In this document: positions 19,313 to 39,406 of the stretch, one piece after another
Layout of the letters: each line of letters begins with the position of its first letter
Numbering within the stretch: position 1 is the stretch's first letter
Assembly (NCBI GenBank): GCA_037200525.1
Contig: JBBCGG010000001.1
Coordinates: forward strand, 1,468,501-1,532,500
Origin: Methylocella sp.
GTDB lineage: Bacteria; Pseudomonadota; Alphaproteobacteria; Rhizobiales; Beijerinckiaceae
Length of the DNA stretch: 64,000 nucleotides
Direction: 5' to 3'
Notes under the pieces: generated by a model
Told to the model about the DNA's origin: nothing
The model's database searches: none
Seen by the model: the letters and a program-made list of their open reading frames with translations, nothing else
Translations under genes and position numbers: made by a program

Positions 19313-20407
19313 TTATTTCACCGTGGTTCGCGCGAAGGCATCAGCCCGTATCGTAGTATCCACCATCTTGCTGACGTCGAAGGACTCGCTGAGGTTGCCG
19401 GTCTTCAACAACAACTGTTCCATCCAAATCAAATTTTCTACAGGTAACGGCATGGATGGATCGATTAGCTTGTTGTTCACAGCCTGATCATAAACGTAAA
19501 CGGGTCTCGCGTCGTCGCCGCTGAGAGTCAGCGTTGTCCGGGCGAGCGCGACTGTTTCCGAACGATGCTGCTCCGCATAGCGGATTCCATCCATCTGTGC
19601 GGCGACAAAGTTGACGGCCGCATCTCGATGGCGCTTTAAAGCCGCGCCGCTCATATAAGTGCAAAGCCTCAGATAAGAAGGCAGTTCCTTGTGGCCGTCG
19701 ACCAGCATCTTTAGGCCGTTTTTCGCTGCTAGCGGAGCAAACTCCGTCGAGAGCGCGGCAGCCCCTATAATTCCGGCCGTCAAAGCGCGGTAGCGGTCTG
19801 CGTCGCCTCCCATCGCGGCGAAGCGCACCTCCGTAACGGGAATGCCTCTTTCCTCGAGAATTGATCTGACCAATAGATCCGGAAGGGAGCCGGGACTCGA
19901 AATAGCGAATACTGCCCCCTTCAGTTGCTCAACGTCAGTGATTTTGTCTGACGTAAACAATCCATAGGAAAGTCCCGGCCAGTAACAGCCAACGACCTTC
20001 ACGTCAGCGCCTCGCGCAGCGGCTATGATCGCCCCGCCCGGGCTTCCTTCAAAGCTATCGACATCGCCGGCTAGCAGCGCCTTCAGGGCGAGTGCGTCGC
20101 CCTTCATCTGAACATATTCGACCCTCAGCCCGTGTTTCGACGCGACCTCGGGCTGACCAGGCATCAGGACGAATCCTGCATCCGCCTTGGCCTCAACGAT
20201 AGCGTGCCGCCAAACCTGAAGTTCTTCCGCGGCAATTGGATGCGCATACGCCAAACCCGCGATAAAGCCTATTGTTGCGAGGATCGCGTCGAGGCGGCAG
20301 AGGATCCACTTTCTACCCGCCGATCCGGTTATTCCCGTCTCCCCTTCTGAGGTCTTGGGAGGAAGAACGAGCCGTGCGGCGAACGCCAATGAGTTTTTGT
20401 GGGTCAC
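19313..20407 (-). CDS. NMT1/TauA-like ABC substrate-binding protein
   Basis: Periplasmic binding protein of about 364 residues. The GTG at 20407 overlaps the UbiD stop (GTGA) and has AGGA about 9 bases upstream, so it is preferred over the upstream start at 20530, which would lie inside UbiD. A signal-like hydrophobic segment (LDAILATIGFIAGLAYAHPIAAEE) precedes the mature domain, with LLAGDVDSFEGSPGGAIIAAARGADVK and ISSPGSLPDLLVRSILEERGI typical of NMT1/SsuA-like proteins. The ligand is unknown; the UbiD neighbour suggests an aromatic or heteroaromatic carboxylate. Confidence 0.8.
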   Translation of the reverse strand: MTHKNSLAFAARLVLPPKTSEGETGITGSAGRKWILCRLDAILATIGFIAGLAYAHPIAAEELQVWRHAIVEAKADAGFVLMPGQPEVASKHGLRVEYVQMKGDALALKALLAGDVDSFEGSPGGAIIAAARGADVKVVGCYWPGLSYGLFTSDKITDVEQLKGAVFAISSPGSLPDLLVRSILEERGIPVTEVRFAAMGGDADRYRALTAGIIGAAALSTEFAPLAAKNGLKMLVDGHKELPSYLRLCTYMSGAALKRHRDAAVNFVAAQMDGIRYAEQHRSETVALARTTLTLSGDDARPVYVYDQAVNNKLIDPSMPLPVENLIWMEQLLLKTGNLSESFDVSKMVDTTIRADAFARTTVK

Positions 20408-22083
20408 GCTGCTGGATCCTGCAAGATTGGTGTATTCATGGCTACGTCGCTGCGTCGTTGCCGAGCAATCTTCTCGCCGGTCGCAAAATATTCGCCACGC
20501 GTCGCAAGAGCGGCCTGCTCCGCAAGCCACTTCGGCCAGTGGCCAAGATCATATCCGTACCAGGGAGACTCCGGCTTCAGCGTCTGCAGACCGAGACGAT
20601 TCCAGAGCTGCTGCGCTTCTTCCATGAACTCGCGTCGTGGGAGGGCAATCGGTGGGAAGCTGCCGCGCATTGTTGCATTGATCAATACCGATCCGCTATC
20701 GCCACTTTGCAGTGAGCTCCGAGGACCATGTCCCGGATCCTTCTTATCCAGGACCTTCAGATCATTTTGCGGTTGACTACGATAGCACATCGCCCAGAAC
20801 AGCGCATCCGCGTTCTCCGGGTCAATATCTTCGTCGACGGCGATAATCCACTTTCCCGCGTAACGGTGCATGGACGATGCGCCATATAGGGCGCGCCAAA
20901 TTTCCGTTTCAAGAGTGCCTTTTGCGAACTGGATTGCGATTAGAGCGATCACGCTCGTCAGGGGCTCGTGCATGTGTACGCGACGAACTCCCGATATTCC
21001 CATGGCGGACCGCAGATGATTAAGCATCACCGGCTCCATGGCCGCGCGACGGATCACGCTCGACTCGCTCGGTGTGACCTGACTAATGAAGGATGTCAGA
21101 ATAGGATGTTGGCGGCGGGTGATTGCCGTGACTTCCATGAACGCATTATATTCCTGAAGATTTACGTAGCCGTGAGACTCTCCAAAGGGAGCCTCAGGCT
21201 CGAGAAATGCAGTTTCAATATAACCCTCGATGACGATCTCGGCCTGAGCGGGCACAAGCAGATCAACCGTCTTGGCGCGAACGACTTCAATCGCGCTACC
21301 GGTCAGCCCACCCGCAACCCACAGCTCGTCGAGACTCTCGGGCATCTTCTGCACCGCGGTATAGGAAACGGCGGGAGGACAGCCAACAATCACCGCGCAG
21401 GGAAGCCGTTCTCCGCGAGCCTTGCGCTTCTCCCAGTGAACCAGAATTCCGGGTCGGATCTCGACAGATGGATTCATGCCAAGCTGGCGCGGTCCTTTTA
21501 TCTGCCCTCGGTAATTACCGAGATTCTGAATCCCGGTATCCGGGTCCATCGTTATGTAGTGCCCGGCGGTAAGATACGGAGCGTTGTCCCATCCTGGCGT
21601 AGAAATCGGAACCGGTAAGCTATCGAGACCGAAACCGGGCCTATCAAGGTCATCGCCGATGAGCACGATGTCGTGGCAGGGAGCTCGTTCCACCAAACTT
21701 GGCGGGATTGGCGCATTTAGGGCTTTCAACCATATTGAGCCGATGGCTCCCGGGTCCGCGCCAAAGCCGATGCGGTAAATATCGCGGCTTCCGGCCAAGC
21801 CCGCCACGAGCACGGCGCCGTCATAGGCCTTGCCTTTCCCGTCGGTCGGGCGCGTGAAAAGGAAAGCGCGTCGATCCACCTCCGGAATGCCGCCGCGATA
21901 TTGCCACCGGACCAGAGGATGCATCACGGTGTCCTTGTTGACGGGCTCATCAACAACGACAAGCAGTCCCGCGTCTGCAAGGTTACGGATGTGATCGCGT
22001 AGATCCGGATATCTGTGTGTCGCCTCCGGATCGCGCTGGAAGCGCGAGAGGGCCGGATGTCTGTCGTTAAAGGAATCAGTCAT
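20404..22083 (-). CDS. UbiD-family (de)carboxylase, long form
   Basis: A 559-residue UbiD-family enzyme, dependent on prenylated FMN supplied by UbiX. Landmarks are the NLGNYRGQIKGPRQLGMNPS Arg-containing cofactor region, PFGESHGYVN with the catalytic Glu, and MHEPLTSVIALIAIQFAKGT. It is longer than the usual 450-500 residues, with extra N- and C-terminal segments, and differs clearly from the second UbiD at 31182. It heads an operon with a TauABC-type importer, so import and decarboxylation of one aromatic acid may be coupled. Two GntR-type palindromes lie upstream. Confidence 0.85.
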   Translation of the reverse strand: MTDSFNDRHPALSRFQRDPEATHRYPDLRDHIRNLADAGLLVVVDEPVNKDTVMHPLVRWQYRGGIPEVDRRAFLFTRPTDGKGKAYDGAVLVAGLAGSRDIYRIGFGADPGAIGSIWLKALNAPIPPSLVERAPCHDIVLIGDDLDRPGFGLDSLPVPISTPGWDNAPYLTAGHYITMDPDTGIQNLGNYRGQIKGPRQLGMNPSVEIRPGILVHWEKRKARGERLPCAVIVGCPPAVSYTAVQKMPESLDELWVAGGLTGSAIEVVRAKTVDLLVPAQAEIVIEGYIETAFLEPEAPFGESHGYVNLQEYNAFMEVTAITRRQHPILTSFISQVTPSESSVIRRAAMEPVMLNHLRSAMGISGVRRVHMHEPLTSVIALIAIQFAKGTLETEIWRALYGASSMHRYAGKWIIAVDEDIDPENADALFWAMCYRSQPQNDLKVLDKKDPGHGPRSSLQSGDSGSVLINATMRGSFPPIALPRREFMEEAQQLWNRLGLQTLKPESPWYGYDLGHWPKWLAEQAALATRGEYFATGEKIARQRRSDVAMNTPILQDPAA

Positions 22084-22245
22084 CTACGATCTTTACTCTC
22101 GCAAACGCCAGCAAAACGGCCGCCCGGTAAAAAGCGCTGCGGAAGCTCCGCGCGTGATCGGAATTCCGCAACTGTCAGGACGTTGGGGATTATAGATCGC
22201 ACACTTCGATCCCACGAAGATGATCTACATGAACGCTGGGTTTCA

Positions 22246-22275
22246 TATGTAAGATTGTCATACGATATGAGTCAA
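22246..22275 (-). promoter_or_regulatory. Promoter with operator copy 2 (UbiD-importer operon)
   Basis: On the minus strand a -35-like TTGACT (22275-22270) is followed after four bases by the palindrome TCGTATGACAA (22265-22255, a variant of the shared operator), then a weak -10 (TTACAT or TACATA) at 17-18 bases spacing. An operator inside the -35/-10 spacer suggests repression. Confidence 0.5.
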
Positions 22276-22334
22276 TGGAAATGCCCGGACGCGGTTAAGA
22301 TAGCCTCAGCATGATCCGTGCCAGCAATTAGCTT

Positions 22335-22345
22335 TTGTCAGACAG
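22335..22345. promoter_or_regulatory. GntR/FCD-type operator copy 3
   Basis: TTGTCAGACAG, second copy of the shared palindrome in the gap between the EthD-like stop and the UbiD start. It is about 80 bases upstream of copy 2 and could allow looping or cooperative binding. Confidence 0.45.
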
Positions 22346-23164: not shown

Positions 23165-24463
23165 TTAATAGGATCGGACCAGCGGTAGCAGCGTGAGCGA
23201 GCCGAGCACGCTTGCAACCACAACGACCAGCAGACCTGTCTGAAAAGTTCCGGTCGTCGCCACGACCCATCCGATCAGCGCAGGCGCGAAGGCTCCGACG
23301 AGATTGCCGATCCCGTTGATCACTCCGATGCCTGTCGACGTCGCAGAGGCAGGAAGCACCCTCATCGCGAGTGCGTAATGGGTTGGCAGGCCGAAACCCC
23401 AAGCGCCCGCGCTGCAGGCGATTACGATCGCGGCGAGATGCGGATCCTGGACGCGAGTGCCAGCGAACAGCAGCAAGCCAGCGGCAAGCAATCCGACAAC
23501 GCTCAGTAGCGCGCAACGGCCTGTTCGGTCAGAGATATAGCCGGAGGACATCTCGGCAATAAACATCAGGATGAAGGGCAATGACGAGTAAATGCCCATT
23601 TGATGTAAATTGAAATGCCGCTCCCGCTCCAAATAAGTGGGCAGCCAGCTGTTGAGACCCCACAGATATGTCAGCAGCCCGGCGCCATAGGCGGAGAGCA
23701 ACCAGACCCGCCGATCGGCGAGCACGACGCGCACATCCACGAGACGGAGCGACGAAGGGGCGGTTGCCGCCGCCACCCTCTCGGCTGTTGCGGGCGGCTG
23801 GTCGCGCACCACAGCGAACACCAATGGCATCACGATCGCAAAGCTTAACAGCCCGAGGACGTAAAATGAGGCGCGCCAGCCGAAGCTCGCAACAAGCCAG
23901 ATTGTGAGCGGGAAGCCTATCGCCGAGCCGAGCGGACTGCCGATCATCCATATCGCGTTGGCGCGCGCCCGTTCGTGCGGCGGAAACCAGCGCTGCACCG
24001 TCTTGGAAATGAGCGAGAATTGCGGTCCCTCGCTGAGGCCGAGGACGATGCGATATGCCAGCATGGCGGCGTAGGAACTGGTGCTCCCCATCAGCGCCAT
24101 CATCATACCCCAGAGTGCGGCGGCGTAACCAAGGGCGCGGCGTGGTCCAAGCACATCGCCGACGAAGCTCAGCAAAAGTGCGGAGATCGCGTAGGCGAGC
24201 AGGAACGCAGTCATGAGCAAGCCGAGCGCTTCGGGGCGAAAGGCGGTGCCTAGCGCGGCGTTGAAGCCGCTATCGGTGAACAGAACTGCAATGCTGATGC
24301 GGTCGAAAAATCCCGTCACGACCGTCGCGAGCATGACAACGGCGATAACCCATCGCCAGGGGGAGCGCGCCGCATCGCGTTTCGGTTGCAGTGGTCCTCC
24401 GCTGTCAGCTAAGGTTTCATCGGACGCTTCGTCGCTGCAGGCAAGGGAGAAAAACTCTGACAT
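23165..24463 (-). CDS. MFS transporter, anion:cation symporter-like (copy 1)
   Basis: A 432-residue, 12-helix major facilitator. It contains FFDRISIAVLFTD after helix 1, GDVLGPRRALG in the loop 2-3 signature position, EGPQFSL and RWFPPHERARANAIWMIGSPLGSAIGFP, all shared with the MFS protein at 35145. This layout is typical of the ACS family that imports organic anions such as aromatic acids. ATG 24463 is preferred over 24478 because AGGGA lies upstream at suitable distance. It sits between the FAD monooxygenase and EthD-like genes. Confidence 0.85.
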   Translation of the reverse strand: MSEFFSLACSDEASDETLADSGGPLQPKRDAARSPWRWVIAVVMLATVVTGFFDRISIAVLFTDSGFNAALGTAFRPEALGLLMTAFLLAYAISALLLSFVGDVLGPRRALGYAAALWGMMMALMGSTSSYAAMLAYRIVLGLSEGPQFSLISKTVQRWFPPHERARANAIWMIGSPLGSAIGFPLTIWLVASFGWRASFYVLGLLSFAIVMPLVFAVVRDQPPATAERVAAATAPSSLRLVDVRVVLADRRVWLLSAYGAGLLTYLWGLNSWLPTYLERERHFNLHQMGIYSSLPFILMFIAEMSSGYISDRTGRCALLSVVGLLAAGLLLFAGTRVQDPHLAAIVIACSAGAWGFGLPTHYALAMRVLPASATSTGIGVINGIGNLVGAFAPALIGWVVATTGTFQTGLLVVVVASVLGSLTLLPLVRSY

Positions 24464-24583
24464 CGAACCATCCCTCATATTATTCCAGCTCTGGGCAACA
24501 AGCAGAGTGATGCAATCGGTATTGCAGCGGAGCGAAGCGGTTTCGGCGGCATTCGCGCCCGTACGCTGGCGGATGGACCACTG

Positions 24584-25792
24584 TCAAATCCGGGTCGCCT
24601 CTCGCACGCTTTCGATCAGCGATGATCGTAGCAAGAAGGCGCGGGCCCGCGCCGGATCAGCGGCCGTCGCCCGGAGACCATCAAGATTGGCTTGGCGCAC
24701 CGTCAGGTCTTTTTCTTCGAGTCGCTTCTTGTTGGCGACTGTCTGATCCTGAACGAACTTTACATTCAATGACCGGCGCCGATGCGCGTACCCGTCTAGA
24801 ACCGCATCGTCCTCGCCCTGTAGCGCCACGGCCGACAGGGAGTCGACAGCATCGATCGCGTCGTGAATGCCGAAGTTAAGTCCGAGACCGCCAATCGGAT
24901 TATTAACGTGCGCAGCATCGCCAGCAAGGAGCACGCGGCCGATGCGAAATGTCTCCGCCACTCGCTGGTGCACAGCATAGAGATTGCGATGCACCAGCTG
25001 ATAGGGATGTCCCAGCGGATAAATTCCTTCAAGACGAGTCGCGACTGCCACGTCGGACAGGGCCTCCTCGTCCGTTTCGTCGGAACGAGTTGGGAAAACG
25101 GCGCGCCAACGCCCTTTCCCGTCATCGCCGGCGACTTTAAACAGATTGGCCCATTCGGAGACGCCGGCAAGATAGTTGCGGAAGCAGCACCCCATCAGCG
25201 CCTTCACATCGTCGAGCACGGTCAACACCACGAAGCGCTCCGGCCAAGTGTAACCCTCAAAGGGAACGCCGAGCGCCTTGCGTATCGTACTGCGACCACC
25301 GTCGGTTGCGATCATCCAGTCAGCGGAAACTGCTTCCTGACCCGCGCTGGACTCAATCTGCACGCTGACCCGGTCGGCGTCCTGCGCACATCCTATGACG
25401 CGGGTTCCAAGTCGCGCTAACATGCCATATTGCTGCAGTTTTTCCAAACCCATGCGCACAAGCTTGTGCTGCTCGGTCTGCACGACAAAAGGAAACGGCG
25501 TCTCATCGCGCAGCAGATCATGATCAAAAGTGGCGACGCGCGCGCGGCTCTCGCGATCCCAAAACTGAAACTCGCGCGCTACAAGTCCCTCGGCAATAAA
25601 TCGATCGAGGAGTCCGATGCGATGGATCATCTCGAGCGTTGAGGGATGCGTCGTCGCGGCGCGTGGATTGGTATCTATTTCAGTAGCCGCCTCGATAAGC
25701 TGAACATCGAAGCCGGACTGCGTTGCAGCGAGCGCGGCGACAACCCCAACGGGACCGGCCCCTACAATGAGAAGTTGTGGTGAGCGACTCAA
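24584..25792 (-). CDS. FAD-dependent aromatic monooxygenase (MhpA/PHBH type)
   Basis: A 402-residue class A flavoprotein monooxygenase. It starts with the Rossmann motif LLIVGAGPVGVVAAL and has a DG-like region IATDGGRSTIRKALG, then VLLAGDAAHVNNPIGGLGLNFGIHDA, the FAD ribityl-binding block. It probably hydroxylates an aromatic or heteroaromatic ring using NAD(P)H and oxygen. The start is a TTG (25792) whose bases overlap the enamidase TGA stop and which follows GGAGGAGG; this removes a spurious 96-residue upstream extension. It shares the operon with the enamidase homologue, suggesting consecutive steps. Confidence 0.83.
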   Translation of the reverse strand: MSRSPQLLIVGAGPVGVVAALAATQSGFDVQLIEAATEIDTNPRAATTHPSTLEMIHRIGLLDRFIAEGLVAREFQFWDRESRARVATFDHDLLRDETPFPFVVQTEQHKLVRMGLEKLQQYGMLARLGTRVIGCAQDADRVSVQIESSAGQEAVSADWMIATDGGRSTIRKALGVPFEGYTWPERFVVLTVLDDVKALMGCCFRNYLAGVSEWANLFKVAGDDGKGRWRAVFPTRSDETDEEALSDVAVATRLEGIYPLGHPYQLVHRNLYAVHQRVAETFRIGRVLLAGDAAHVNNPIGGLGLNFGIHDAIDAVDSLSAVALQGEDDAVLDGYAHRRRSLNVKFVQDQTVANKKRLEEKDLTVRQANLDGLRATAADPARARAFLLRSSLIESVREATRI

Positions 25793-26985
25793 TGTCCTCC
25801 TCCGGAAAAGTCCATCAGCAATCGGCATTCGGCGACGCGGACGCGACGATTGGTTGCCGGCGTGTTGCGACTGCGACCGACGAAACGCGGCGCCCCATTG
25901 GCGACGACTGCGCCCACTGCCGCGATATCGCCGTTGCGCAGAGCGGACAGCGCGTCGTTCTGCGAGCCGCCCGCACATGCGTCTATTAAGACAATGTCGG
26001 CATCGCGGCCGACGCGCAGGAATCCTGAATTCAGTCGATAGATCTGTGCGTTGTTCCCGGTCGCGGCGGCAATCGCCCACTCGACCGGAAGATCCGTCAG
26101 ACTCGCAAGATGCGAAATTGTGTAGAGCATGCCAAGAGGCATGATTCCGCTACCCGTCGGCGTATCCGTCGCTATCAGCAGCCGGTCGAAAGCGTTGGCC
26201 TTGCGTGCAAGCTCAGTTACGAGGAGCGTTGTGCGCAGATTGCCCGCAGTGCATAGCTGCAAGGCGATCTCGGTTTCCTCCACTAGGCGCGGAAAGTCGG
26301 CGTCCGGCATCGCAACCGGGCCGCCATTTACGTGGAATGATACGTCTGGCCGGACGGCGAGAAGATGATCGGCCCAGATCCCTGAAGAGCCAGGGATCGA
26401 GGAGCCGCCGGTATGCATCGTGGTGATCATTCCGGCGCGTCGGGCCCAGGCGACCTGCTCCGCGTAACCGAACGGCGTGTCGAAGCCGCCAAAACCAGCC
26501 TTTGCAAGCCATACGCCCTGCGCAGCAAGTTCGGCGAAGTCGCTTTCGACTAGCCCGGGCTCAAGAATGACAGAGCCGGCGTGCACGCGCATTCCGCCTG
26601 GCCGGTAATGTTGAAAGCAACGTGAAGCCGCAATAGCGAGCGCCTTGACGCCGGCCGGGTCGGTCGGGCGGCCGGGCACATGCACCTCAGACGCGGAAAT
26701 GGCTGTCGTAACGCCGCCGTGAACATAGCTCTCAAGATAGCCGACTGTCTTTTGACGCGGCGTGTAGTCCCCGAAGGTGATGTGGACGTGGCTGTCGATC
26801 AGGCCAGGAATAGCGACGACGCCGTCGGCATCAATTACTACGTCAGCGGCGGCAATGTCTTGCGAAGACAACGGGCCCACTGCCGTTATGATTCCGTCCT
26901 CGCATAGAAGCGCCTCAGCGGAATGAAACGGATCCCGCCAGTCGCCGGTGACGATTCGCCCAATATTGACGATCGCCGTCCTCAT
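25789..26985 (-). CDS. Enamidase-like cyclic amidohydrolase
   Basis: A 398-residue metal-dependent amidohydrolase resembling Eubacterium barkeri enamidase, which opens 6-oxo-tetrahydronicotinate. Shared-looking blocks are PRQKTVGYLESYVHGGVTT, MHTGGSSIPGSS, HVNGGP, ATDTPTGSGIMPLGML, and a late SRNTP. Candidate metal ligands are His66, His68, His191, His218 and Asp274. Lys162 falls where, from memory, the clostridial enzyme has a bridging Glu, and Lys is the usual carboxylated bridge in hydantoinases. It likely hydrolyses a cyclic enamide (lactam) made after ring hydroxylation, releasing ammonia and a semialdehyde. It overlaps the FAD monooxygenase start by four bases. Confidence 0.78.
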   Translation of the reverse strand: MRTAIVNIGRIVTGDWRDPFHSAEALLCEDGIITAVGPLSSQDIAAADVVIDADGVVAIPGLIDSHVHITFGDYTPRQKTVGYLESYVHGGVTTAISASEVHVPGRPTDPAGVKALAIAASRCFQHYRPGGMRVHAGSVILEPGLVESDFAELAAQGVWLAKAGFGGFDTPFGYAEQVAWARRAGMITTMHTGGSSIPGSSGIWADHLLAVRPDVSFHVNGGPVAMPDADFPRLVEETEIALQLCTAGNLRTTLLVTELARKANAFDRLLIATDTPTGSGIMPLGMLYTISHLASLTDLPVEWAIAAATGNNAQIYRLNSGFLRVGRDADIVLIDACAGGSQNDALSALRNGDIAAVGAVVANGAPRFVGRSRNTPATNRRVRVAECRLLMDFSGGGH

Positions 26986-27004: not shown

Positions 27005-27580
27005 TCACCGGAGACCGTCCTTTCCCTCGATTTGGTCGGCCCGGAGTCCGCCGACGCGATCGTCAATCCGGCCTCGATTTGCCACGCAGATGATCACGGC
27101 GATCTCGTCTGCTTGCGGCCCATCGGGAACGGTGATCGTCATGCCATCATAGTGTGAGCGGACATAGAGCGCATCTTTGTGAGCGAGTGGGACATCAATC
27201 GAACTGCCGGGCGCGGCGCGCTTAGTGAAGGACGAAATCCAGGCGGCGGCGCCGCCAATCGCCTCGCGTAGCGGAGCCGCGAAGGTTGAAGTGACCAGCG
27301 CGTTAATGTGTTCCTGCTTGCCGTCAAGACCGACAATACCACCTTTGCCATAGCTGCAAACTTCATAAGGCGCCATTGCGGCGACGGCGTGTTGCGAAAG
27401 AAATCGTCCGAGCTCCGCGCTGGCGGCGATCATGTCGGTGAGATCATCGCCGTGCTGATCGGCTAGCGGATTACGTACGATTCCCACCACCGCGACCTTA
27501 CGGAGCGGATCGCCGCTGTCCCTTTCATTCGGCAACGTCTCGTCTATAAAGAGGAGGCTGCGAAGGATGGGAAGCTGCAT
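27005..27580 (-). CDS. AA_synth (DUF1185) family protein, copy 1
   Basis: A 191-residue member of the 'amino acid synthesis' (AA_synth/DUF1185) family, whose biochemical role is not established. Markers are VVGIVRNPLA, CSYGKGGIVGLDGKQEH, PLREAIGGAAAWISSFTKRAAPG and the C-terminal ANRGRIDDRVGGL. ATG 27580 follows AGGA by eight bases. It heads the operon leading to enamidase, FAD monooxygenase, MFS carrier and EthD-like protein. Its recurrence beside a second MFS gene at 34453 argues for a real metabolic role in this pathway, possibly on a cyclic amide or imine intermediate (inference). Confidence 0.82.
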   Translation of the reverse strand: MQLPILRSLLFIDETLPNERDSGDPLRKVAVVGIVRNPLADQHGDDLTDMIAASAELGRFLSQHAVAAMAPYEVCSYGKGGIVGLDGKQEHINALVTSTFAAPLREAIGGAAAWISSFTKRAAPGSSIDVPLAHKDALYVRSHYDGMTITVPDGPQADEIAVIICVANRGRIDDRVGGLRADQIEGKDGLR

Positions 27581-28302: not shown

Positions 28303-29688
28303 ATGACTGCGAATGACCCGGCAGCGATTTCGATTAACCCGTTTACCGGGAGGACAATTGCGACGTTCCCCAACCAGACCGACGCGGAGGTTGAACAGAC
28401 GCTGTCCGCTACGGCCGCTGCATTCCGTGTTTGGCGGCAGACGCCAATCGCGGATCGCGCGGCTATCGTCCGCCAGATGGGGTTAACCCTGCGGACCCGC
28501 TCCGACGAATTCGCCGAAGATATAACTCGTGAGATGGGAAAGACCCTCGCCGAAGCAAGAGCCGAGGTGCAAAAGTGCGCCGATCAATGCGAGTGGTATG
28601 CAGCCAACGGACCGTCCATGTTGGCTGACAAAGCGGTCAGCGTGGAAAAAGGCGACGCCTATATTTCCTATTTGCCTCTCGGTCCGGTCCTGGGCGTGAT
28701 GCCGTGGAATTTTCCGATTTGGCAAGTGTTGCGCGCCGCGGTCCCTATCATCCTTTCCGGCAACTGCTTCGTTCTGAAACATTCTCGGAATGTCATGCGT
28801 TCGGCGTTCAATATCGAAGATGCGTGGGATCAAAGCGGACTCCCAAAAGGCCTCTTCTCAATCCTCAACATACCGCAGGACAAAGTTGCCGCGGTGCTCG
28901 CCGATCGCCGCATCGCGGCGGTCACAGTGACAGCCGGCACAAAAGCGGGCTCGGCGGTAGCCTCGCAAGCAGGCTCCCTCCTGAAGAAATCCGTTCTTGA
29001 ACTAGGAGGCTCGGATGCCTTCATTGTCTTGAAAGACGCCGACGTGGAACAGGCCGTCGCGGCCGGGATTCGGGCGCGATTTCAAAACAACGGTCAGGTC
29101 TGCATCGCGGCGAAGCGATTCATTCTAGAGAAACCGATTGCCAAGGAGTTTACCGATCGCCTCGTTGAAGGCGTGCGCGCGCTCAGGCTGGGAGACCCGA
29201 CGGAGAGCGAGACGCAGCTGGGACCGATGGCGCGCGTTGATCTTCGGACGGAGCTCCATAACCAGATCGAGTCTTCGAAAAGAGCCGGCGCGGAGATTCT
29301 TACCGGAGGGGGCTTCACGAGCGATGCCGGCTATTTTTATCGGCCGACCGTGCTTAATCATGTCGCGCCTGGGATGGCGGCGTTCGATCAGGAGACATTT
29401 GGTCCGTGCGCGGCTCTAACGGTGGTCGGCGACCTGGACCAAGCCGTTGCTCTCGCCAACCACAGCCAATACGGTCTCAGCGGCAACCTCTGGACCAAGG
29501 ATCTTGATTTGGCCGGGAAGGCTGCGCGGCGCCTCGAGACCGGAGGCGTATTCATAAACGGCTTCTCGGCATCCGATCCGCGCGTCCCGATCGGTGGCGT
29601 CAAGATGAGCGGCTACGGACGCGAACTCTCCTATTTCGGCGCCACGGAGTTCGTGAACATCCAGACCGTTTGGCGCAATCGATCCTGA
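28303..29688 (+). CDS. Succinate-semialdehyde-type aldehyde dehydrogenase
   Basis: A 461-residue ALDH: PWNFPIWQVLRAAVPIILSGNCFVLKH, the LELGGSDAFIVL loop with general-base Glu, and NNGQVCIAAKRFIL with the catalytic Cys. The N-terminus NPFTGRTIATFPNQTDAEVE and the overall length match the succinate-semialdehyde dehydrogenase (GabD/Sad) group. In this cluster it could oxidise succinic semialdehyde or a similar semialdehyde released by the enamidase step, feeding the TCA cycle (inference). It is first in a plus-strand operon with an MFS carrier, UbiD and UbiX. Confidence 0.85.
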   Translation: MTANDPAAISINPFTGRTIATFPNQTDAEVEQTLSATAAAFRVWRQTPIADRAAIVRQMGLTLRTRSDEFAEDITREMGKTLAEARAEVQKCADQCEWYAANGPSMLADKAVSVEKGDAYISYLPLGPVLGVMPWNFPIWQVLRAAVPIILSGNCFVLKHSRNVMRSAFNIEDAWDQSGLPKGLFSILNIPQDKVAAVLADRRIAAVTVTAGTKAGSAVASQAGSLLKKSVLELGGSDAFIVLKDADVEQAVAAGIRARFQNNGQVCIAAKRFILEKPIAKEFTDRLVEGVRALRLGDPTESETQLGPMARVDLRTELHNQIESSKRAGAEILTGGGFTSDAGYFYRPTVLNHVAPGMAAFDQETFGPCAALTVVGDLDQAVALANHSQYGLSGNLWTKDLDLAGKAARRLETGGVFINGFSASDPRVPIGGVKMSGYGRELSYFGATEFVNIQTVWRNRS

Positions 29689-29828
29689 CAAAACCATCTT
29701 CCGCTAGGCCGGGCGTGTCGCGCTTTGCTTGGACGGATGCTGTTGTGCCCAAAGTGGAACGCCTTTTGCTGGAGATCTGCCTCCTGTCAAGCCGATCGAA
29801 GCGGGAGCACACACCCACGGAGGGCGCG

Positions 29829-31139
29829 ATGTCTGATGGCACAAAATGGGTTTGGTTATCGCAGTTCGCCATGGAGGCGGCCCCGCGGGGCTTATGGGTC
29901 GTGTTCGCCGCCGCTCTCGGAGTCGGGATTGGTCTTTTGGGACTTCCCTTTTTAACGATCGGGCTTTTTATGGGCCCGCTTCATGCAGACTTTGGCTGGT
30001 CCAGGGTGCAAGTATCCGGAGCATCCGTTTGCATAAATGTCGCAACCCTTTTTGCCTCTCCTTTCATCGGCCGTCTATGCGACCGGGTCGGCGTTCGTCC
30101 TGTGGCGATCGGATCGCTCATCGCCTTATGCCTTGGCTTTCTTGCGCTGGCCGCCATGAATGGATCTATCATCGTTTACTACGCCTTGTGGTTGGCGCTC
30201 TCAGTGGGTTCGGTCGGAACCAGCGGGATTGTCTGGACGCGCGCAATCGGGACGCTGTTCGATAAGAATCGCGGGTTTGCTTTGGGCTTGACTCTGACTG
30301 GGACGGCTTTCGCGGCTTTGCTAGGGCCGTTGGCGCTCGGACCCGTCATCGGTTCTTTTGGCTGGCGCGGAGGTTACCTCGGGTTGGCTGCAATTACGGC
30401 CATCGCTATCCCAGTCACTCATTTCTTCTTTTTTGAGAGGCGACCTAAAGAAGAGACTGCCGGCAAGGGCGACGGGCTGACCGAAGTTGGTTCGCTCCTC
30501 GGCCTTACCAGACAAGAGGCGTTTAAAACTGCAAGCTTCTGGAAGATGGGCGCAGGCCTCTTCCTCGTTGTGCTAGGCATGGGCTCGTTCCTTGTTCATT
30601 TCGTCCCATTAGCGGTGGATGCAGGCGTTAAAATCCAGACAGCGACGCGCTTCTTTTCCATTATAGGCCTGTCGATGCTTGTAGGCCGACTATTTATTGG
30701 CAGGTTGCTTGACCGCTTCCACGCGGCGTATGTTGCCGCCGCCGCCCTTTGCTTTCCGGCGCTGGCGTGCTGGATGCTTATCGGAGCGGGTCCCAGCTGG
30801 ACGCTCTTTGCCCTCGCCGCCGCAATCATCGGGTTCTGCGCGGGAGCGGAAATCGATCTGATCGCCTATCTCGTATCACGCTATTTTGGCATGCGGGCCT
30901 ATGGCGAAATATACGGCTGTCAAATGGCCTTCTTCGCTGCCGGCAGCGGTATCGGCGGAATGCTCACAGGATACATACACGACACCTGCGGCTCGTACGA
31001 TCCTGCTTTACGCGGCGGCATATTCGTCTTCATCGCTGGAGCGTGCATCATCGGATCGATGGGGTCTTTGCCGGTGTTCGGTCACAAGACGCCGGATCCG
31101 ATCTCAGAGTCGCTCTCCTTATCACGATCGACCACTTAA
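29829..31139 (+). CDS. MFS transporter (oxalate/monocarboxylate-like)
   Basis: A 436-residue, 12-helix MFS protein starting MSDGTKWVWLSQFAMEAAPRGLW. It has GRLCDRVGVRPV between helices 2 and 3 and a repeated GRLLDRF in the second half, as in monocarboxylate/oxalate-type carriers. It is only distantly similar to the other two MFS carriers here. ATG 29829 follows GGAGGG; the extension upstream to 29670 overlaps the dehydrogenase gene and is rejected. It probably moves the aromatic acid or a product. Confidence 0.82.
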   Translation: MSDGTKWVWLSQFAMEAAPRGLWVVFAAALGVGIGLLGLPFLTIGLFMGPLHADFGWSRVQVSGASVCINVATLFASPFIGRLCDRVGVRPVAIGSLIALCLGFLALAAMNGSIIVYYALWLALSVGSVGTSGIVWTRAIGTLFDKNRGFALGLTLTGTAFAALLGPLALGPVIGSFGWRGGYLGLAAITAIAIPVTHFFFFERRPKEETAGKGDGLTEVGSLLGLTRQEAFKTASFWKMGAGLFLVVLGMGSFLVHFVPLAVDAGVKIQTATRFFSIIGLSMLVGRLFIGRLLDRFHAAYVAAAALCFPALACWMLIGAGPSWTLFALAAAIIGFCAGAEIDLIAYLVSRYFGMRAYGEIYGCQMAFFAAGSGIGGMLTGYIHDTCGSYDPALRGGIFVFIAGACIIGSMGSLPVFGHKTPDPISESLSLSRSTT

Positions 31140-33320: not shown

Positions 33321-34007
33321 TCAGGCGGCGGGAGGCCTTTTAGTTCGCTCTTCAGTCGAATAGGCTTTGGTCGCCGCTTCGCTGGCGCAGCGAACGTGCG
33401 CGATAGCCGCCGCTCTAGCGGCTTCGGCGTCATGCGCCGAGACGGCCTTCAATATTGCGCGCATCTCCTTACTGCTCTTTTGCGCTCGACCCGGCAGAGA
33501 CATGGATTTGAAGCGTAAGAAGGTTATTCGCGCGAGAAGCACGTCCAGCATTTCATGTATGATCAGGTTCCCGCAACCTGACAGCATCTGCTCGTAGAAT
33601 TGCCGCGTAGCCTCGAGCTGCTGGGTTCGATCGCCGTCCTTGACCGCGGCGTCAAACGCCTCCAGCGCGTGACGCATATGAGCGATGGCGGACGTCGGGG
33701 CGCACTCAGCGAATAAAGCCGCCGCCTCGCCTTCAAGCAGAGCCCGGACGCCATAGATCTCTCGCGCTTGTTCGATCGTCAAAACCGGGATCACCGGCCC
33801 CTTGTTGGGTACGATCGTCACGAGCCGCTCCGCCTCAAGACTTCGCAAGGCCTCACGAACCGAAGGGCGGCTGATCCCAAGGCGGTTGCACAGCTCCGAC
33901 TCCACGAGGCGATCCCCAGGCTGGAACACTCCCGAGATAATCGCTTCCCGTAGCTTACGAACAGCCAGCCCCTGCACGCTCTGGGGCGAGACCTTGAGAT
34001 CCATCAT
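33321..34007 (-). CDS. GntR family (FadR/FCD) transcriptional regulator
   Basis: A 228-residue regulator with an N-terminal winged helix (LREAIISGVFQPGDRLVESELCNRLGISRPSVREALRSLEAERLV, roughly residues 18-62) and a C-terminal all-helical FCD ligand-binding domain. This subfamily binds short palindromes of the form TNGTNNNACNA and usually senses small carboxylates. TTGTCNGACAA sites around it fit that rule. It is encoded between the UbiX and AA_synth copy 2 genes, so it is the obvious candidate for control of the whole cluster. Confidence 0.88.
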   Translation of the reverse strand: MMDLKVSPQSVQGLAVRKLREAIISGVFQPGDRLVESELCNRLGISRPSVREALRSLEAERLVTIVPNKGPVIPVLTIEQAREIYGVRALLEGEAAALFAECAPTSAIAHMRHALEAFDAAVKDGDRTQQLEATRQFYEQMLSGCGNLIIHEMLDVLLARITFLRFKSMSLPGRAQKSSKEMRAILKAVSAHDAEAARAAAIAHVRCASEAATKAYSTEERTKRPPAA

Positions 34008-34402: not shown

Positions 34403-34452
34403 TATGAAAGTTTGATCTATCGACCAACGTCTTCATGTGAGTGGTTTTTGGG

Positions 34453-35028
34453 ATGGATATCAAAATTCGCAGGGTTACGACGCTCGTGGAGGAGCATTTT
34501 TTTGAAGCCGGCCGGAAGGCTGATACGCCGATTCGAAAGGTTGCGGCGGTTATCGTCATCGAGAACCCGTATGCAGGTCGTTATGTGGAAGATCTTTCCC
34601 CTTTGACGGAAGCAAGCGCGCAACTTGGCCGTCAAATGGCTGCGCAGGCTGTGGCGCCCCTCAATGGGGCCTCCGTGGAAAGCTATGGAAAAGCCGGACT
34701 CGTCGGAATGTCTGGGGAGACCGAGCACGCAAATGCCTTGCTTACCACTATCTTTGCTATCCCTTTTCGCGAAGCCATTGGCGGCGGGGACGCATGGATC
34801 TCCTCGGTGACAAAAGTGGCCGCGCCGGGCGCGCTCATCGACGTGCCAATGAACTCCAAGGACGAAATTTACATCCGCTCGCACTATAATACGATGAGCC
34901 TTGTGTTGCCTGATGCGCCGATGCCCGATGAAATCGCCCTCATCTTCTGCTTGGCGACCCGGGGGCGTCTGAATGCGCGCGTCGGCGGCCTAACCCTTGC
35001 AGAAGTAAAGAAGCGGCAGGCTCAATAG
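34453..35028 (+). CDS. AA_synth (DUF1185) family protein, copy 2
   Basis: A 191-residue paralogue of the protein at 27005-27580. It has RRVTTLVEEHFFEAG, VIENPYAGRYVEDL, ESYGKAGLVGMSGETEH, PFREAIGGGDAWISSVTKVAAPGALIDVP and ATRGRLNARVGGL. The start at ATG 34453 matches the usual family N-terminus; a GTG at 34441 is also in frame. It is followed by an MFS paralogue, mirroring the AA_synth plus MFS content of the other operon. The function of the family is not established. Confidence 0.82.
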   Translation: MDIKIRRVTTLVEEHFFEAGRKADTPIRKVAAVIVIENPYAGRYVEDLSPLTEASAQLGRQMAAQAVAPLNGASVESYGKAGLVGMSGETEHANALLTTIFAIPFREAIGGGDAWISSVTKVAAPGALIDVPMNSKDEIYIRSHYNTMSLVLPDAPMPDEIALIFCLATRGRLNARVGGLTLAEVKKRQAQ

Positions 35029-36410: not shown

Positions 36411-36502
36411 GGGATATAGAAACGCAAGCGGCGAAGCGTTGCTCTTAGAGAAACGTTCACGGTCGCTCTCGTTCAACGGCCGCATGGTTGGGCGGCTGCT
36501 CG

Positions 36503-37168
36503 TCAGGACGGTCTCGACGAGCTGGCCCGCTTGCCAGCTTTGTTGCGCCGGATCTCCACCAACGCGAACTCGCTATTAAGCGCAAAGCGAGTGAAAAACT
36601 CCTGAACGTGCTGAAGGTCGTCGCGCGTCATATTGGCGAAGAGCCTATCATTGACGGATCGCACCAACGGGGTCACATCGCGCACGATCTCTTCGCCTTG
36701 CGACGACAAACTCACGAGTACGCCGCGTCGATCTTCACAGTTCGGACGTTTGTCCAGCAGACCGAGCCTGATCAAGCGTCCGACCTCCGTTGTCACATGC
36801 GTAGGCGCCAGATGCACATGCGTGGCGAGCTTCCCGATGCTGACGCCCAGCGTTCCCTGCGTGTAAGCGGTGCCCATCAGAACTGCGAATTGGGGACTTG
36901 TCAGTCCCATTGCGCGTCCGAAGGCCTCGCGGCAAGCCTGAAGCCGGCCAAGGACGAGCACCATCAGGTAGAGCGTCTCGCGCAGCGAGTCGTCGCGCCC
37001 ATTCGCCAGGAGGGACTCGTTGGATATCGTCAGCGGCGGCGCAAATGGCGTAGGCGCGCCGCCGCTGCGCGCCCGTGATTCTGAGGGAGGGACCGTTTTT
37101 TGCTTGCGACTACCCAAGTCGTCACCATGGCTTTTCGTATAGCTTCCTCGCCGCTTTGAAGGCGGCAT
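36503..37168 (-). CDS. MarR family transcriptional regulator
   Basis: A 221-residue MarR-type protein with a basic N-terminal extension (about 60 residues) and the winged-helix core GLTSPQFAVLMGTAYTQ, SIGKLATHVHLAPTHVTTEVGRLIRLGLLDKRPNCEDRRGVLVSLS. ATG 37168 follows AAGGAA and is preferred to 37198. It is divergent from the two-component monooxygenase operon and a perfect palindrome lies in the shared promoter region, so it probably controls those genes in response to an aromatic ligand. Confidence 0.85.
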   Translation of the reverse strand: MPPSKRRGSYTKSHGDDLGSRKQKTVPPSESRARSGGAPTPFAPPLTISNESLLANGRDDSLRETLYLMVLVLGRLQACREAFGRAMGLTSPQFAVLMGTAYTQGTLGVSIGKLATHVHLAPTHVTTEVGRLIRLGLLDKRPNCEDRRGVLVSLSSQGEEIVRDVTPLVRSVNDRLFANMTRDDLQHVQEFFTRFALNSEFALVEIRRNKAGKRASSSRPS

Positions 37169-37232
37169 CGTGCATTCCTTATAGTTCCGCGCGCTCAACG
37201 TCCAAGAGGCACCGTGCCGACGCCAGCTTTTT

Positions 37233-37251
37233 TATATGTACAATACATATA
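37233..37251. promoter_or_regulatory. MarR-type operator in the divergent promoter
   Basis: A perfect palindrome TATATGTA-CAA-TACATATA between the MarR gene (start 37168) and the monooxygenase gene (start 37317). Its AT-rich symmetry and position are as expected for a MarR site overlapping both promoters. Confidence 0.55.
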
Positions 37252-37316
37252 TAATTATTGTATCTAAATGCTAACTTTGACCGTTTTCGCCGTTGATCGC
37301 CTTCCCGGAGAACCAA

Positions 37317-38810
37317 ATGACAGCCGCCGCCTCCACGATGCCCGCTCAAGCGCCACGCCCGGCCAGTCTTCGAACAGGTGAAGAATATCTGAGAAGCCTG
37401 AATGATGGCCGCGCCGTGTTCTTTGACGGCGAAAGGGTGAAGAACGTTGCAACTCACCCTGCCTTCGCGGGAGCGGCGGCATCATCCGCTCGCCTCTTTG
37501 ACATAGCGGCCGACCCGGCCATGCGTGAACGCATGACTGTGACCTCGCCGACGGGAGCGCAGACTCTACGCGCTTATCAAATTCCGAGGACACCCGCAGA
37601 TCTTCGCGCCAAGCGGCTTGCGTCGGAAACATGGTCGGAAGCTTCATTTGGCCTCATCGGCCGTTCCCCCGATCATGTGGCCGGGTTTTTCGTCGGCTAC
37701 GCGGCCGTCCCAGAAGTGTTTGCAGCCGGAGGCAAGGGGTTCGCCGAAAACGTCGTCGCTTTCTATGAGCATCTACGCGACAACCATCTGTGGGCGACAT
37801 ATGCAATCGTCCCGCCGCAAATTGATCGATCGAAACCGGCGCACAAGCAAAGCGATCCAACCCTATATGCCGGCGTTGTGAAAGAGACGGACGGCGGCAT
37901 CGTAATTTCAGGCGCGCAGCAACTCGCAACTGCAGGTCTCTATTCCGACTTCCTTTATCTCAGCTGCATCCATCCGCTCCAAGCCGGCGACGAGAACTAT
38001 GCGATAGGCGTTGCAATTCCCATGAATGCGGAGGGCCTTCGTCTGTATCCGCGTCGGCCTTTCGCCGCGCAAGTCGACAATAGTTTCGATCATCCACTCT
38101 CGAGCCGGTTCGACGAGTCCGACTGCTTTGTCGTGTTGGAGAACGTTACAGTTCCTTGGGAGCGGGTCTTCATATACCGGAACATCGAGGTCTGCAGGGA
38201 TCAATGGTGGAAGACGCCATCCCATTCCTATGGAAACCTCCAGGCGCAGGCGCGCTACGCCACGAAACTCCGCTTCATGATCGGGCTTGCCAAGCGGATG
38301 AATGAAATGACTGGAAATGACGCTCTGCCTCCCGTCATGGTTCAGATGGGCGAGTTGGCGGCCTTGGTTTCGATTGTCGAGACGATGCTTGAGGCGCAGG
38401 AAACTAAAGCGACGATCGACGACAAGGGCGTCGTCTGGCCGTGCAAACAAGCTCTCTATGCGGTCATGTCCCTGCAATCGGAAATCAATCCGCGCATGGT
38501 GGAGATCGTCCGCGAATTGACAGGTGCAGCAATGCTCACGCTCCCGTCTTCTATCAAAGACCTCGATAGCGATCTGACATCACCGGATATCGAACGCTTT
38601 ATGGGGTCGGATTCGACAGGCGCCCGCGAAAGGATTGCGCTGATGCGAATGGCATGGGACTTTATTGGCTCCGAATTCGGCAGCCGTCACCAACAATATG
38701 AGAAATTCTATGGTGGAGCGTCCTTCCTCGTGAAGCAGAACATGTTTCGCAGCTTTGACTTTAAACGCGCCACGGCGCTCGTCGACAGGGCGCTTGCGCT
38801 TCCAGCGTAG
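37317..38810 (+). CDS. HpaB-type FADH2-dependent aromatic monooxygenase
   Basis: A 497-residue oxygenase component of the 4-hydroxyphenylacetate 3-monooxygenase (HpaB)/chlorophenol monooxygenase family (acyl-CoA-dehydrogenase fold). It has LRTGEEYLRSLNDGRAVFFDGERVKNVATHPAF, RDNHLWATYAIVPPQIDRSK, GAQQLATAGLYSDFLYLS, VPWERVFIYRN and an IVRELTGAAMLTLPSS C-terminal block. GGAG precedes ATG 37317. It needs reduced flavin from the reductase encoded next. The substrate is likely a phenolic or N-heterocyclic ring; regiospecificity cannot be judged. Confidence 0.87.
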   Translation: MTAAASTMPAQAPRPASLRTGEEYLRSLNDGRAVFFDGERVKNVATHPAFAGAAASSARLFDIAADPAMRERMTVTSPTGAQTLRAYQIPRTPADLRAKRLASETWSEASFGLIGRSPDHVAGFFVGYAAVPEVFAAGGKGFAENVVAFYEHLRDNHLWATYAIVPPQIDRSKPAHKQSDPTLYAGVVKETDGGIVISGAQQLATAGLYSDFLYLSCIHPLQAGDENYAIGVAIPMNAEGLRLYPRRPFAAQVDNSFDHPLSSRFDESDCFVVLENVTVPWERVFIYRNIEVCRDQWWKTPSHSYGNLQAQARYATKLRFMIGLAKRMNEMTGNDALPPVMVQMGELAALVSIVETMLEAQETKATIDDKGVVWPCKQALYAVMSLQSEINPRMVEIVRELTGAAMLTLPSSIKDLDSDLTSPDIERFMGSDSTGARERIALMRMAWDFIGSEFGSRHQQYEKFYGGASFLVKQNMFRSFDFKRATALVDRALALPA

Positions 38811-38851
38811 CTTTGTTCCCGCCGCCACAGCATTCTGGATTGAGCGAGACA

Positions 38852-39406
38852 ATGAGTTCATCGGATGCGCTCCCGCTAGTCTCAGCCCGCGATTTCCGCG
38901 ATGCTGTGGGCCTTTTCCCGACGGGCGTTGCGATCGTCACTGCGACTAGCGCTTCGGGCGATCGGCTTGGGGCGACCGTCAGCTCCTTCTCCTCCGTCTC
39001 GCTTGAGCCTCCCCTTGTCTCCTTTAACCTTTCAAAGGCGGCGAAGTCGTTCGACGAATGGGCGTCCGCAGCCTGCTTTGCAGTCAACCTTCTGTCGGAA
39101 AATCAAGACGACCTATCAACGAGATTCGCTCGCTCGATGACCGACAAGTGGGGTGGCATAACGCCGCTGCAAGGGAAGATGATTGAAGCGCCCCTCCTTG
39201 AGGGAGCCCTGGCGTGGCTTGAATGCAGCAAATTCGCGCAATATGAAGGAGGTGACCACCTCATAATATTAGGTCGCATTCTCATACTGACGCGCAATCA
39301 ACGGGCGAGCGAGAGGCCGCTCGTATTCTTCAAGAGTCGCTATCACCGCCTGGATGCCGACCGCGCAAGGCTTCAAGAAAACGCAATGTGGCTGCACGGC
39401 TGGTGA
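38852..39406 (+). CDS. HpaC-type flavin reductase
   Basis: A 184-residue flavin reductase of the DIM6/NTAB (HpaC) family: FRDAVGLFPTGVAIVTA, GATVSSFSSVSLEPPLVSFNLSK, FAVNLLSENQDDLSTRFA and WLECSKFAQYEGGDHLIILGRI. It supplies FADH2 or FMNH2 to the HpaB-type oxygenase upstream (gap 41 bases). ATG 38852 is used; the upstream TTG/ATG alternatives add a proline-rich stretch not seen in the family. Confidence 0.87.
   Translation: MSSSDALPLVSARDFRDAVGLFPTGVAIVTATSASGDRLGATVSSFSSVSLEPPLVSFNLSKAAKSFDEWASAACFAVNLLSENQDDLSTRFARSMTDKWGGITPLQGKMIEAPLLEGALAWLECSKFAQYEGGDHLIILGRILILTRNQRASERPLVFFKSRYHRLDADRARLQENAMWLHGW

What the first reader, a model, noticed from the sequence alone, without database searches (positions are those of the whole stretch)
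20404..39406. Candidate new aerobic pathway for a (hetero)aromatic carboxylate built on UbiD, flavin monooxygenases and an enamidase
Seen: two UbiD enzymes, UbiX, a class A FAD monooxygenase, an HpaB/HpaC-type two-component monooxygenase, an enamidase-like hydrolase, two AA_synth proteins, a succinate-semialdehyde-type dehydrogenase and three MFS plus one ABC carrier packed in 19 kb. Known: UbiD decarboxylates pyrrole-2-carboxylate and hydroxyaromatic acids, enamidase opens cyclic enamides. Inferred route: import, decarboxylation, hydroxylation to a pyrrolinone- or pyridone-like lactam, enamidase cleavage to an enamine that loses ammonia, giving succinic semialdehyde, then succinate. I do not know a described pathway with this gene set.
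Basis: partly seen in the sequence, partly recalled or inferred. Interest (0 to 1): 0.8.

Follow-up and report, generated by a model that had tools for sequence, protein, structure and literature searches.

The report
Oxygen-dependent enamidase pathway for N-heterocycles
This bacterial gene island looks like an undescribed aerobic route for eating a small nitrogen-containing aromatic acid, in which an oxygen-using enzyme and a distinct branch of the ring-opening enzyme enamidase work together; the exact food molecule is not yet known.

Summary
The pathway idea is partly supported, with a shift of emphasis. The enamidase belongs to a separate branch (40 of 102 sequences, 100% SH-aLRT) with Lys where nicotinate-type enamidases, PDB 2VUN included, have Glu. 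The close loci of that branch never show 6-hydroxynicotinate reductase (0 of 36, others 38 of 62), and a search of this genome with the Sulfitobacter enzyme found none. Instead the enamidase sits beside AA_synth and often EITHER a class A flavin monooxygenase with a DUF4286 protein OR an HpaB-type monooxygenase; this choice changes at least five times on the tree. UbiD is an optional front end: UbiD1-type in 5 of 36 loci, UbiD2-like in two more. Best reading: hydroxylation makes a lactam tautomer, the Lys-type enamidase opens it, AA_synth helps release ammonia, and a semialdehyde is oxidised. A pyrrole-type acid giving succinate fits the carbon count, but substrate, order and all activities are inferred. 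AA_synth as a RidA-like imine/enamine hydrolase is a lead with weak statistics.

The parts
25789..26985 (-). Lys-type enamidase-like amidohydrolase (core)
   Evidence: 2VUN 341 bits; H66, H68, K162, H191, H218, D274; 2VUN E164 aligns with K162; own clade
27005..27580 (-). AA_synth 1 (PF06684), proposed imine/enamine hydrolase or semialdehyde helper (core)
24584..25828 (-). class A FAD monooxygenase (start about 25828, chosen by eye)
   Evidence: PF01494 181.7 bits; best PDB PnpA 6AIN 185 bits and HspB 7DA9 157 bits
22449..23126 (-). DUF4286 protein, duplicated ferredoxin-like fold; possible isomerase or cofactor-free oxygenase
   Evidence: PF14114 29.7 bits; model from 6 sequences, pLDDT 91.1; Foldseek: putative monooxygenase 3MCS, anthrone oxidase-like 5F9P, chalcone isomerase; present in 9 of 9 Lys-branch FMO loci
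23165..24478 (-). MFS transporter 1
   Evidence: PF07690; 47% identical to MFS 3
20404..22083 (-). UbiD1 decarboxylase, optional front end
   Evidence: PF01977 176 bits; R192, E297, E302 invariant in 11 of 11 aligned family members; best PDB HmfF 128 bits (enzyme name from recall and PMC8988006)
28303..29688 (+). succinate-semialdehyde-type aldehyde dehydrogenase
   Evidence: PF00171; PRK13968 595.6 bits, below cut-off
29670..31139 (+). MFS transporter 2
   Evidence: PF07690
31182..32606 (+). UbiD2 decarboxylase
   Evidence: PF01977 208 bits; best PDB 7PDA 398 bits
32667..33275 (+). UbiX flavin prenyltransferase
   Evidence: TIGR00421 254 bits over cut-off 108.9
33321..34007 (-). GntR/FCD regulator
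   Evidence: PF07729, PF00392; GntR near the enamidase in 9 of 36 close loci, 0 of 62 others
34441..35028 (+). AA_synth 2
   Evidence: PF06684 224.5 bits
35145..36410 (+). MFS transporter 3
   Evidence: PF07690
36503..37198 (-). MarR regulator
   Evidence: PF01047
37293..38810 (+). HpaB-type oxygenase
   Evidence: PF11794, PF03241; Thermus HpaB 2YYK 289 bits
38813..39406 (+). HpaC-type flavin reductase with SxxPP and GDH motifs
   Evidence: PF01613 124 bits; motifs named in PMC13040415, read in the translation
17647..20530 (-). NMT1-type ABC transporter (permease, ATPase, binding protein), likely accessory
   Evidence: names read by eye translations; homologues beside enamidase and FMO in Rhodoplanes L054 and A. 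vitis L045
13786..15564 (-). asparaginase-like protein, possible accessory
   Evidence: PF00710 44.8 bits over part of the protein; 66% homologue in Caballeronia L058

Best explanation
A catabolic island for a small N-heteroaromatic acid, most likely of the pyrrole type. Proposed order: (1) uptake by MFS/ABC carriers; (2) optional removal of a ring carboxylate by UbiD1/UbiD2 with prFMN from UbiX; (3) hydroxylation next to the ring nitrogen by the class A monooxygenase or by HpaBC, so that the hydroxy-heteroarene becomes a cyclic enamide (lactam) tautomer, perhaps helped by the DUF4286 protein; (4) hydrolysis of the lactam by a Lys-type enamidase; (5) loss of ammonia from the resulting enamine/imine, assisted by AA_synth; (6) oxidation of the semialdehyde. 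For pyrrole-2-carboxylate the carbons balance: C5 acid, minus CO2 to C4 pyrrole, plus O to pyrrolinone, plus 2 H2O minus NH3 to succinic semialdehyde, then succinate. SHOWN here: gene content, a distinct enamidase branch, its recurring partners, exchangeable hydroxylases, no hit for the nicotinate reductase in this genome, conserved UbiD and enamidase catalytic residues. INFERRED: substrate, order of steps, every enzymatic activity, the roles of AA_synth and DUF4286.
For: Enamidase homology and conserved residues. Lys162 group monophyletic with 100% SH-aLRT support (quick method, midpoint root), 2VUN outside it with Bacillota and Syntrophorhabdaceae sequences. AA_synth within 300 bp of the enamidase in 28 of 36 close loci against 7 of 62 others; FMO or HpaB in 19 of 36 against 1 of 62; 6-hydroxynicotinate reductase 0 of 36 against 38 of 62. 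Both new close loci of the phylum survey (L151, L152; 2 of 2) have AA_synth next door plus HpaB or FMO. Hydroxylase type changes 6 times on a 22-row tree, at least 5 forced by strong branches, and is not clearly more clustered than shuffled labels (mean 7.2, 130 of 500 as low). UbiD1 occurs in 7 of 11 class genomes with a close-branch enamidase and 5 of 374 without. UbiD1 relatives lie beside molybdenum hydroxylase genes in L049 and in 3 of the 12 loci L139-L150 (L145, L146, L149), and Caballeronia L058 has an NCS2 nucleobase-type permease, which point to N-heterocycles. SSADH-like genes in Mariluticola L047, Mesorhizobium L046, Pigmentiphaga L051 and the window.
Against: No substrate or activity is known for any member. 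An SSADH-like dehydrogenase is near only 4 of 36 close loci (2 of 62 others, p 0.19), so succinic semialdehyde is weakly supported. 14 of 36 close loci show none of the three hydroxylase types tested, and L057, L060 and L062 show neither AA_synth nor a hydroxylase. AA_synth anywhere within 11 kb is as common in the other branches (46 of 62) as here (28 of 36, p 0.81); only the tight adjacency differs. In L027 the HpaB, AA_synth and enamidase genes sit in what reads by eye as a meta-cleavage pathway, so some members may serve other aromatics. 13 of 38 close rows have Gln instead of the first metal-ligand His. The other 9 of 12 UbiD1 loci show no molybdenum hydroxylase hit. In the 7 of 11 UbiD1 profile the two genes need not be adjacent (in G104 and G381 they are far apart), four of the seven genomes are one family and one is this genome. 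The authors of PMC7913881 could not show a stimulating effect for HcdD, an AA_synth homologue. Confidence lowered from 0.5 to 0.45 when these points were rechecked.
Confidence: 0.45

Rival explanations
1. Same enzymology but for a pyridine-type acid: hydroxylations give a di- or trihydroxypyridine whose lactam/imide tautomer is opened by the enamidase, giving a C5 semialdehyde, oxo acid or amide.
For: E. barkeri enamidase acts on a six-membered lactam (stated in PMC7356986); FMO relatives include HspB, a pyridine monooxygenase; some UbiD1 relatives lie beside molybdenum hydroxylase genes.
Against: The SSADH-like partner fits C4 better, though such enzymes are often loose (recalled); no 6-hydroxynicotinate reductase hit in the genome.
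Confidence: 0.25
2. The amidohydrolase is a ring-cleaving oxygenase like KpiC (3,4-dihydroxypyridine dioxygenase), following FMO as KpiC follows KpiA.
For: KpiC is an amidohydrolase-family protein, related to enamidase, acting after a flavin monooxygenase (PMC7356986 passages).
Against: KpiC is reported as 28% identical to E. barkeri enamidase, while the window protein aligns to it over residues 2-384 with 341 bits and the hydrolase residues are kept. No AA_synth appears in the part of the kpi gene table that I saw.
Confidence: 0.1
3. Two or three independent pathways lie side by side: UbiD/HpaBC for a phenolic acid, and FMO, enamidase and AA_synth for an N-heterocycle.
For: The plus-strand and minus-strand halves carry their own MFS, AA_synth and UbiD; UbiD2 and UbiX score best with the VdcC and VdcB (hydroxyarylic acid decarboxylase) models, below those models' cut-offs.
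Against: AA_synth is in both halves and the genome has only these two; HpaB lies in the same locus as the enamidase in 13 Lys-branch loci; only one enamidase was found for both halves.
Confidence: 0.25

Closest known systems
Enamidase (Ena) of the Eubacterium barkeri nicotinate pathway, PDB 2VUN
   Same: Same family over nearly the full length; hydrolysis of a cyclic enamide proposed; AA_synth is also a neighbour of nicotinate-type relatives
   Different: Lys instead of Glu at the position aligned with E164; no 6-hydroxynicotinate reductase; oxygenases would supply the lactam instead of ring reduction
Trigonelline (Tgn) pathway of Acinetobacter baylyi
   Same: TgnE succinic semialdehyde oxidation is stimulated by TgnF, an AA_synth homologue (passage in PMC7913881; the primary paper was not held); flavin monooxygenase start (recalled)
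   Different: No enamidase or UbiD there (recalled)
kpi pathway (4-hydroxypyridine, Arthrobacter IN13)
   Same: Flavin monooxygenase followed by an enamidase-related amidohydrolase
   Different: KpiC is reported as an oxygenase and is distant from enamidase
Pyrrole-2-carboxylate monooxygenase of Rhodococcus and HudA/PA0254 pyrrole-2-carboxylate decarboxylase
   Same: A two-component flavin hydroxylase and a UbiD decarboxylase are known for this substrate (the first seen only as a reference title in PMC6165268; the second from PMC7976604 passages)
   Different: Neither window UbiD is close to PA0254 by score; the Rhodococcus genes were not available for comparison
Rut pyrimidine pathway
   Same: Works alike in outline: flavin oxygenase, hydrolase, RidA-family RutC for the enamine, semialdehyde (all recalled)
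   Different: Different ring-opening chemistry; no homology claimed

Membership tests
Enamidase (2VUN type) | full-length homology to 2VUN | tested here: met
   341 bits, residues 2-384
Enamidase (2VUN type) | metal/catalytic residues H, H, H, H, D (roles recalled) | tested here: met
   H66, H68, H191, H218, D274 in the window; the first His is Gln in 13 of 38 close rows and a gap in 1
Enamidase (2VUN type) | Glu at the 164 position (bridging ligand, recalled) | tested here: not met
   Lys162 here and in 38 of 38 close rows; Glu in 67 of 70 others, Phe in 2, Lys in 1
Enamidase (2VUN type) | hydrolysis of a cyclic enamide | not testable with these tools
   needs an assay
Reductive nicotinate pathway | 6-hydroxynicotinate reductase in the cluster or genome | tested here: not met
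   0 of 36 close loci; no match in the own genome with the Sulfitobacter query at E <= 0.001, a query that matches in 38 of 62 other loci
UbiD prFMN decarboxylase | Arg-Glu-Glu residues (roles recalled) and a UbiX | tested here: met
   UbiD1 R192, E297, E302 in 11 of 11; UbiD2 aligned with 7PDA through EGPFGE; UbiX over cut-off
HudA/HmfF heteroaromatic UbiD clade | close sequence grouping | tested here: inconclusive
   UbiD1 best is 6H6X (HmfF) at only 128 bits, PA0254 about 84; UbiD2 best 7PDA. No tree with characterised UbiDs was made
HpaBC two-component monooxygenase | HpaB domains plus flavin reductase next door | tested here: met
   TIGR02309 334 bits is below its 480 cut-off, so the model does not call it a 4-hydroxyphenylacetate hydroxylase
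PHBH-type class A monooxygenase | FAD_binding_3 domain, PnpA/HspB relatives | tested here: met
AA_synth (PF06684) | family score and fold | tested here: met
RidA imine/enamine deaminases | shared fold with AA_synth | tested here: inconclusive

The most novel reading that the evidence does not exclude
An aerobic 'oxygenate-then-enamidase' pathway for pyrrole-type acids exists in Alpha- and Betaproteobacteria, Actinomycetota and Bacillota, built on a Lys-type enamidase with exchangeable flavin hydroxylases, and the orphan family AA_synth (PF06684) is its imine/enamine hydrolase, a functional counterpart of RidA, serving also the nicotinate and trigonelline routes.
Probability: 0.25. Interest if true: 0.78.

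Novelty: new variant of a known kind. Interest (0 to 1): 0.6.

Why it matters
If right, it adds an oxygen-dependent branch to enamidase chemistry known from nicotinate breakdown, gives a genetic handle on aerobic breakdown of pyrrole-type acids, and offers a first testable catalytic role for AA_synth, whose structures were published in 2010 with only a suggested link to amino-acid metabolism (PMC2954203 passages).

Tried and rejected
Filing it as a nicotinate pathway: rejected. UbiD as the defining enzyme: rejected, most close loci show none in reach. HudA or HmfF identity for the UbiDs: not supported. UbiD1 has Ser at the place aligned near the HmfF/HudA specificity residue, invariant in 11 of 11, but the alignment there is uncertain, so it is not used as evidence. 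HpaC as a PhdC-like prFMN maturase: unlikely, the SxxPP and GDH motifs that PhdC lacks are present. KpiC-like oxygenase: judged unlikely.

AA_synth replaced by RidA: in the first sample a Rid gene lies within 8.6 kb in 6 of 22 enamidase loci without AA_synth and 1 of 76 with it, p 4e-4; p 0.0016 to 0.006 after dropping near-copies. Second sample: 1 of 15 against 0 of 24, p 0.38, so not confirmed on its own. The pooled p of 4e-4 reuses the discovery set. The strongest single case is L071, where a PF01042 gene sits in the AA_synth place. Most loci lacking AA_synth have neither; the own genome has four PF01042 genes elsewhere. Foldseek alone listed no Rid protein in the 50 rows shown for the AA_synth model.

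Cut-offs: 'close' means at least 53% identity in tblastn; L072 (Alteribacillus) and L048 (Rhodococcus) fell outside but belong to the Lys group on the tree, so they count among the 62 'others'. 98 distinct enamidases remained of 107 rows after 97% grouping; the 38 and 70 rows were not grouped. UbiD2-like genes were not among the markers; L025 and L064 carry one. Flanks differ in length and short contigs lower all counts. Gene names in loci without annotation rest on tblastn with window genes or on reading by eye, except the proteins scanned.

Papers: PMC7356986, PMC2954203, PMC7913881, PMC8988006, PMC13040415, PMC6165268, PMC7976604 and PMC12746152 were seen as found passages only; others as search listings. 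What 7PDA acts on was not found.
Full report
Observation. The window lies in a 5.24 Mb single-contig genome. Every gene named in the finding is present with strong family support. Additions: a DUF4286 protein at 22449-~23126, a GntR and a MarR regulator, and an NMT1-type ABC transporter (by eye) mostly left of the stated start. The minus-strand half reads AA_synth, enamidase, FMO, MFS, DUF4286, UbiD1; the plus-strand half ALDH, MFS, UbiD2, UbiX, then AA_synth, MFS, HpaB, HpaC. The halves share paralogous parts (MFS1/MFS3 47% and the two AA_synth 48% identical).

Enamidase. Its only close solved relative is E. barkeri enamidase 2VUN (341 bits; the next hit has 35 bits). Where 2VUN has Glu164 (bridging ligand, recalled), the window has Lys162. 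In 38 of 38 close rows this is Lys; in the other 70 it is Glu in 67, Phe in 2, Lys in 1. On a tree of 102 sequences the 40 Lys rows form one group with 100% SH-aLRT support (quick method, midpoint root), spanning Alpha- and Betaproteobacteria, Acidimicrobiia, a Rhodococcus plasmid and Alteribacillus; 2VUN falls outside, with Bacillota and Syntrophorhabdaceae sequences (support 91). A Lys here recalls the carboxylated lysine of hydantoinase- and dihydroorotase-type enzymes (recalled); this was not tested.

Neighbours. I collected loci from 385 class genomes (37 with a match), plasmids (25 records; seven regions opened), named genomes (80 loci) and 398 phylum genomes (20 with a match, three of them seen before). 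Among 98 distinct enamidases in the first sets, the 36 close ones have AA_synth within 300 bp in 28, FMO in 8, HpaB in 11, FMO or HpaB in 19, DUF4286 in 9, GntR in 9, UbiD1 in 5, an SSADH-like ALDH in 4, and 6-hydroxynicotinate reductase in 0. The 62 others have 7, 0, 1, 1, 1, 0, 1, 2 and 38. AA_synth within 11 kb is common to both (28 of 36 and 46 of 62). 14 of the 36 show none of FMO, HpaB or a molybdenum hydroxylase. The Sulfitobacter plasmid shows what many of the others are: a nicotinate cluster with 6-hydroxynicotinate reductase and two AA_synth genes. Clean examples of the close type are Agrobacterium vitis (GntR, AA_synth, amidohydrolase, DUF4286, FAD monooxygenase, ABC), Mariluticola (GntR, DUF4286, AA_synth, amidohydrolase, FAD monooxygenase, TRAP, SSADH), Caballeronia L058 (UbiD1 70%, UbiX, FMO, DUF4286, AA_synth, enamidase, plus an NCS2 permease), Rhodoplanes L054 and, in the Lys group but below the 53% line, Alteribacillus L072 (HpaC, HpaB, enamidase, DUF4286, AA_synth). 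Two further close loci, L151 and L152, fit the pattern. Against this, Shinella L044 shows AA_synth and enamidase without any of these hydroxylases.

Hydroxylases. FMO and HpaB look like alternatives around the same enamidase: on a tree of the 22 loci with one of them, the label changes 6 times, at least 5 forced by strong branches, and is not clearly more clustered than shuffled labels. DUF4286 accompanies FMO in 9 of 9 loci (in L054 some 8 kb away) but HpaB in 2 of 13. FMO's nearest solved relatives, PnpA and HspB, hydroxylate at substituted positions (recalled), which would allow a decarboxylating hydroxylation without UbiD. Molybdenum hydroxylase genes replace or join them in L025, L046, L061 and L070.

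UbiD. UbiD1 keeps Arg192, Glu297 and Glu302 in 11 of 11 aligned family members but is not close to any solved UbiD (6H6X 128 bits). It is found in 7 of 11 class genomes with a close enamidase and 5 of 374 without; four of the seven are one family, one is this genome, and adjacency was not required. Relatives outside this context lie beside molybdenum hydroxylase genes in L049 and in 3 of 12 further loci. UbiD2 is nearest to 7PDA (398 bits), whose substrate I could not find.

Mechanism and substrate. An oxygenase that puts OH next to the ring nitrogen makes a lactam tautomer, which is what an enamidase needs when no ring reductase is present. For a pyrrole acid decarboxylated on the way, the product is succinic semialdehyde, matching the SSADH-like gene. 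A pyridine acid or a mixed cluster cannot be excluded; SSADH-like genes are too rarely linked (4 of 36) to decide.

Novelty. In the held open-access library 8 papers contain the word enamidase; two of them appeared in a more targeted search and I read passages of one; none of the titles or passages that I saw describes this gene set. Searches for UbiD plus pyrrole, amidohydrolase or hydroxypyrrole terms listed no description. Subscription papers were not searched. I rate it a new variant of a known kind: enamidase chemistry with an aerobic supply of the lactam.

Noticed in passing
834-10800 (-): A second catabolic set: ALDH, branched-chain-type ABC transporter (by eye), PuuE-like deacetylase, FAA hydrolase, RutB/BiuH-like isochorismatase-fold amidase and alpha/beta hydrolase; looks like amide or heterocycle breakdown.
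   Followed up: partly
53274-62426 (+): ABC transporter genes with a periplasmic-binding protein (PF13433; the rest by eye) followed by a DMFA2_C (N,N-dimethylformamidase beta-like) protein with a laminin-G-like domain (PF20254 284 bits) and a protein with weak Rieske-oxygenase hits.
   Followed up: partly
40145-47670: D5_N primase-like protein, phage-type integrase and a transposase just right of the island, suggesting an integrated element next door.
   Followed up: no
48383-49786 (-): Weakly MauG-like protein with two CxxCH motifs by eye.
   Followed up: no
L027 (G202), 1-18976: HpaB, AA_synth and enamidase embedded in genes that read by eye as a meta-cleavage pathway (Rieske, extradiol dioxygenase, hydrolase, aldolase) with an arylamine N-acetyltransferase-like gene.
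   Followed up: no
L071, 4358-15216: RidA-family gene, enamidase, HpaB, FAA hydrolase, flavin reductase fused to a LysR substrate domain, then hydantoinase A and B.
   Followed up: partly
G361 and G479 enamidase genes: Nicotinate-type enamidase matches with one in-frame TGA each.
   Followed up: no
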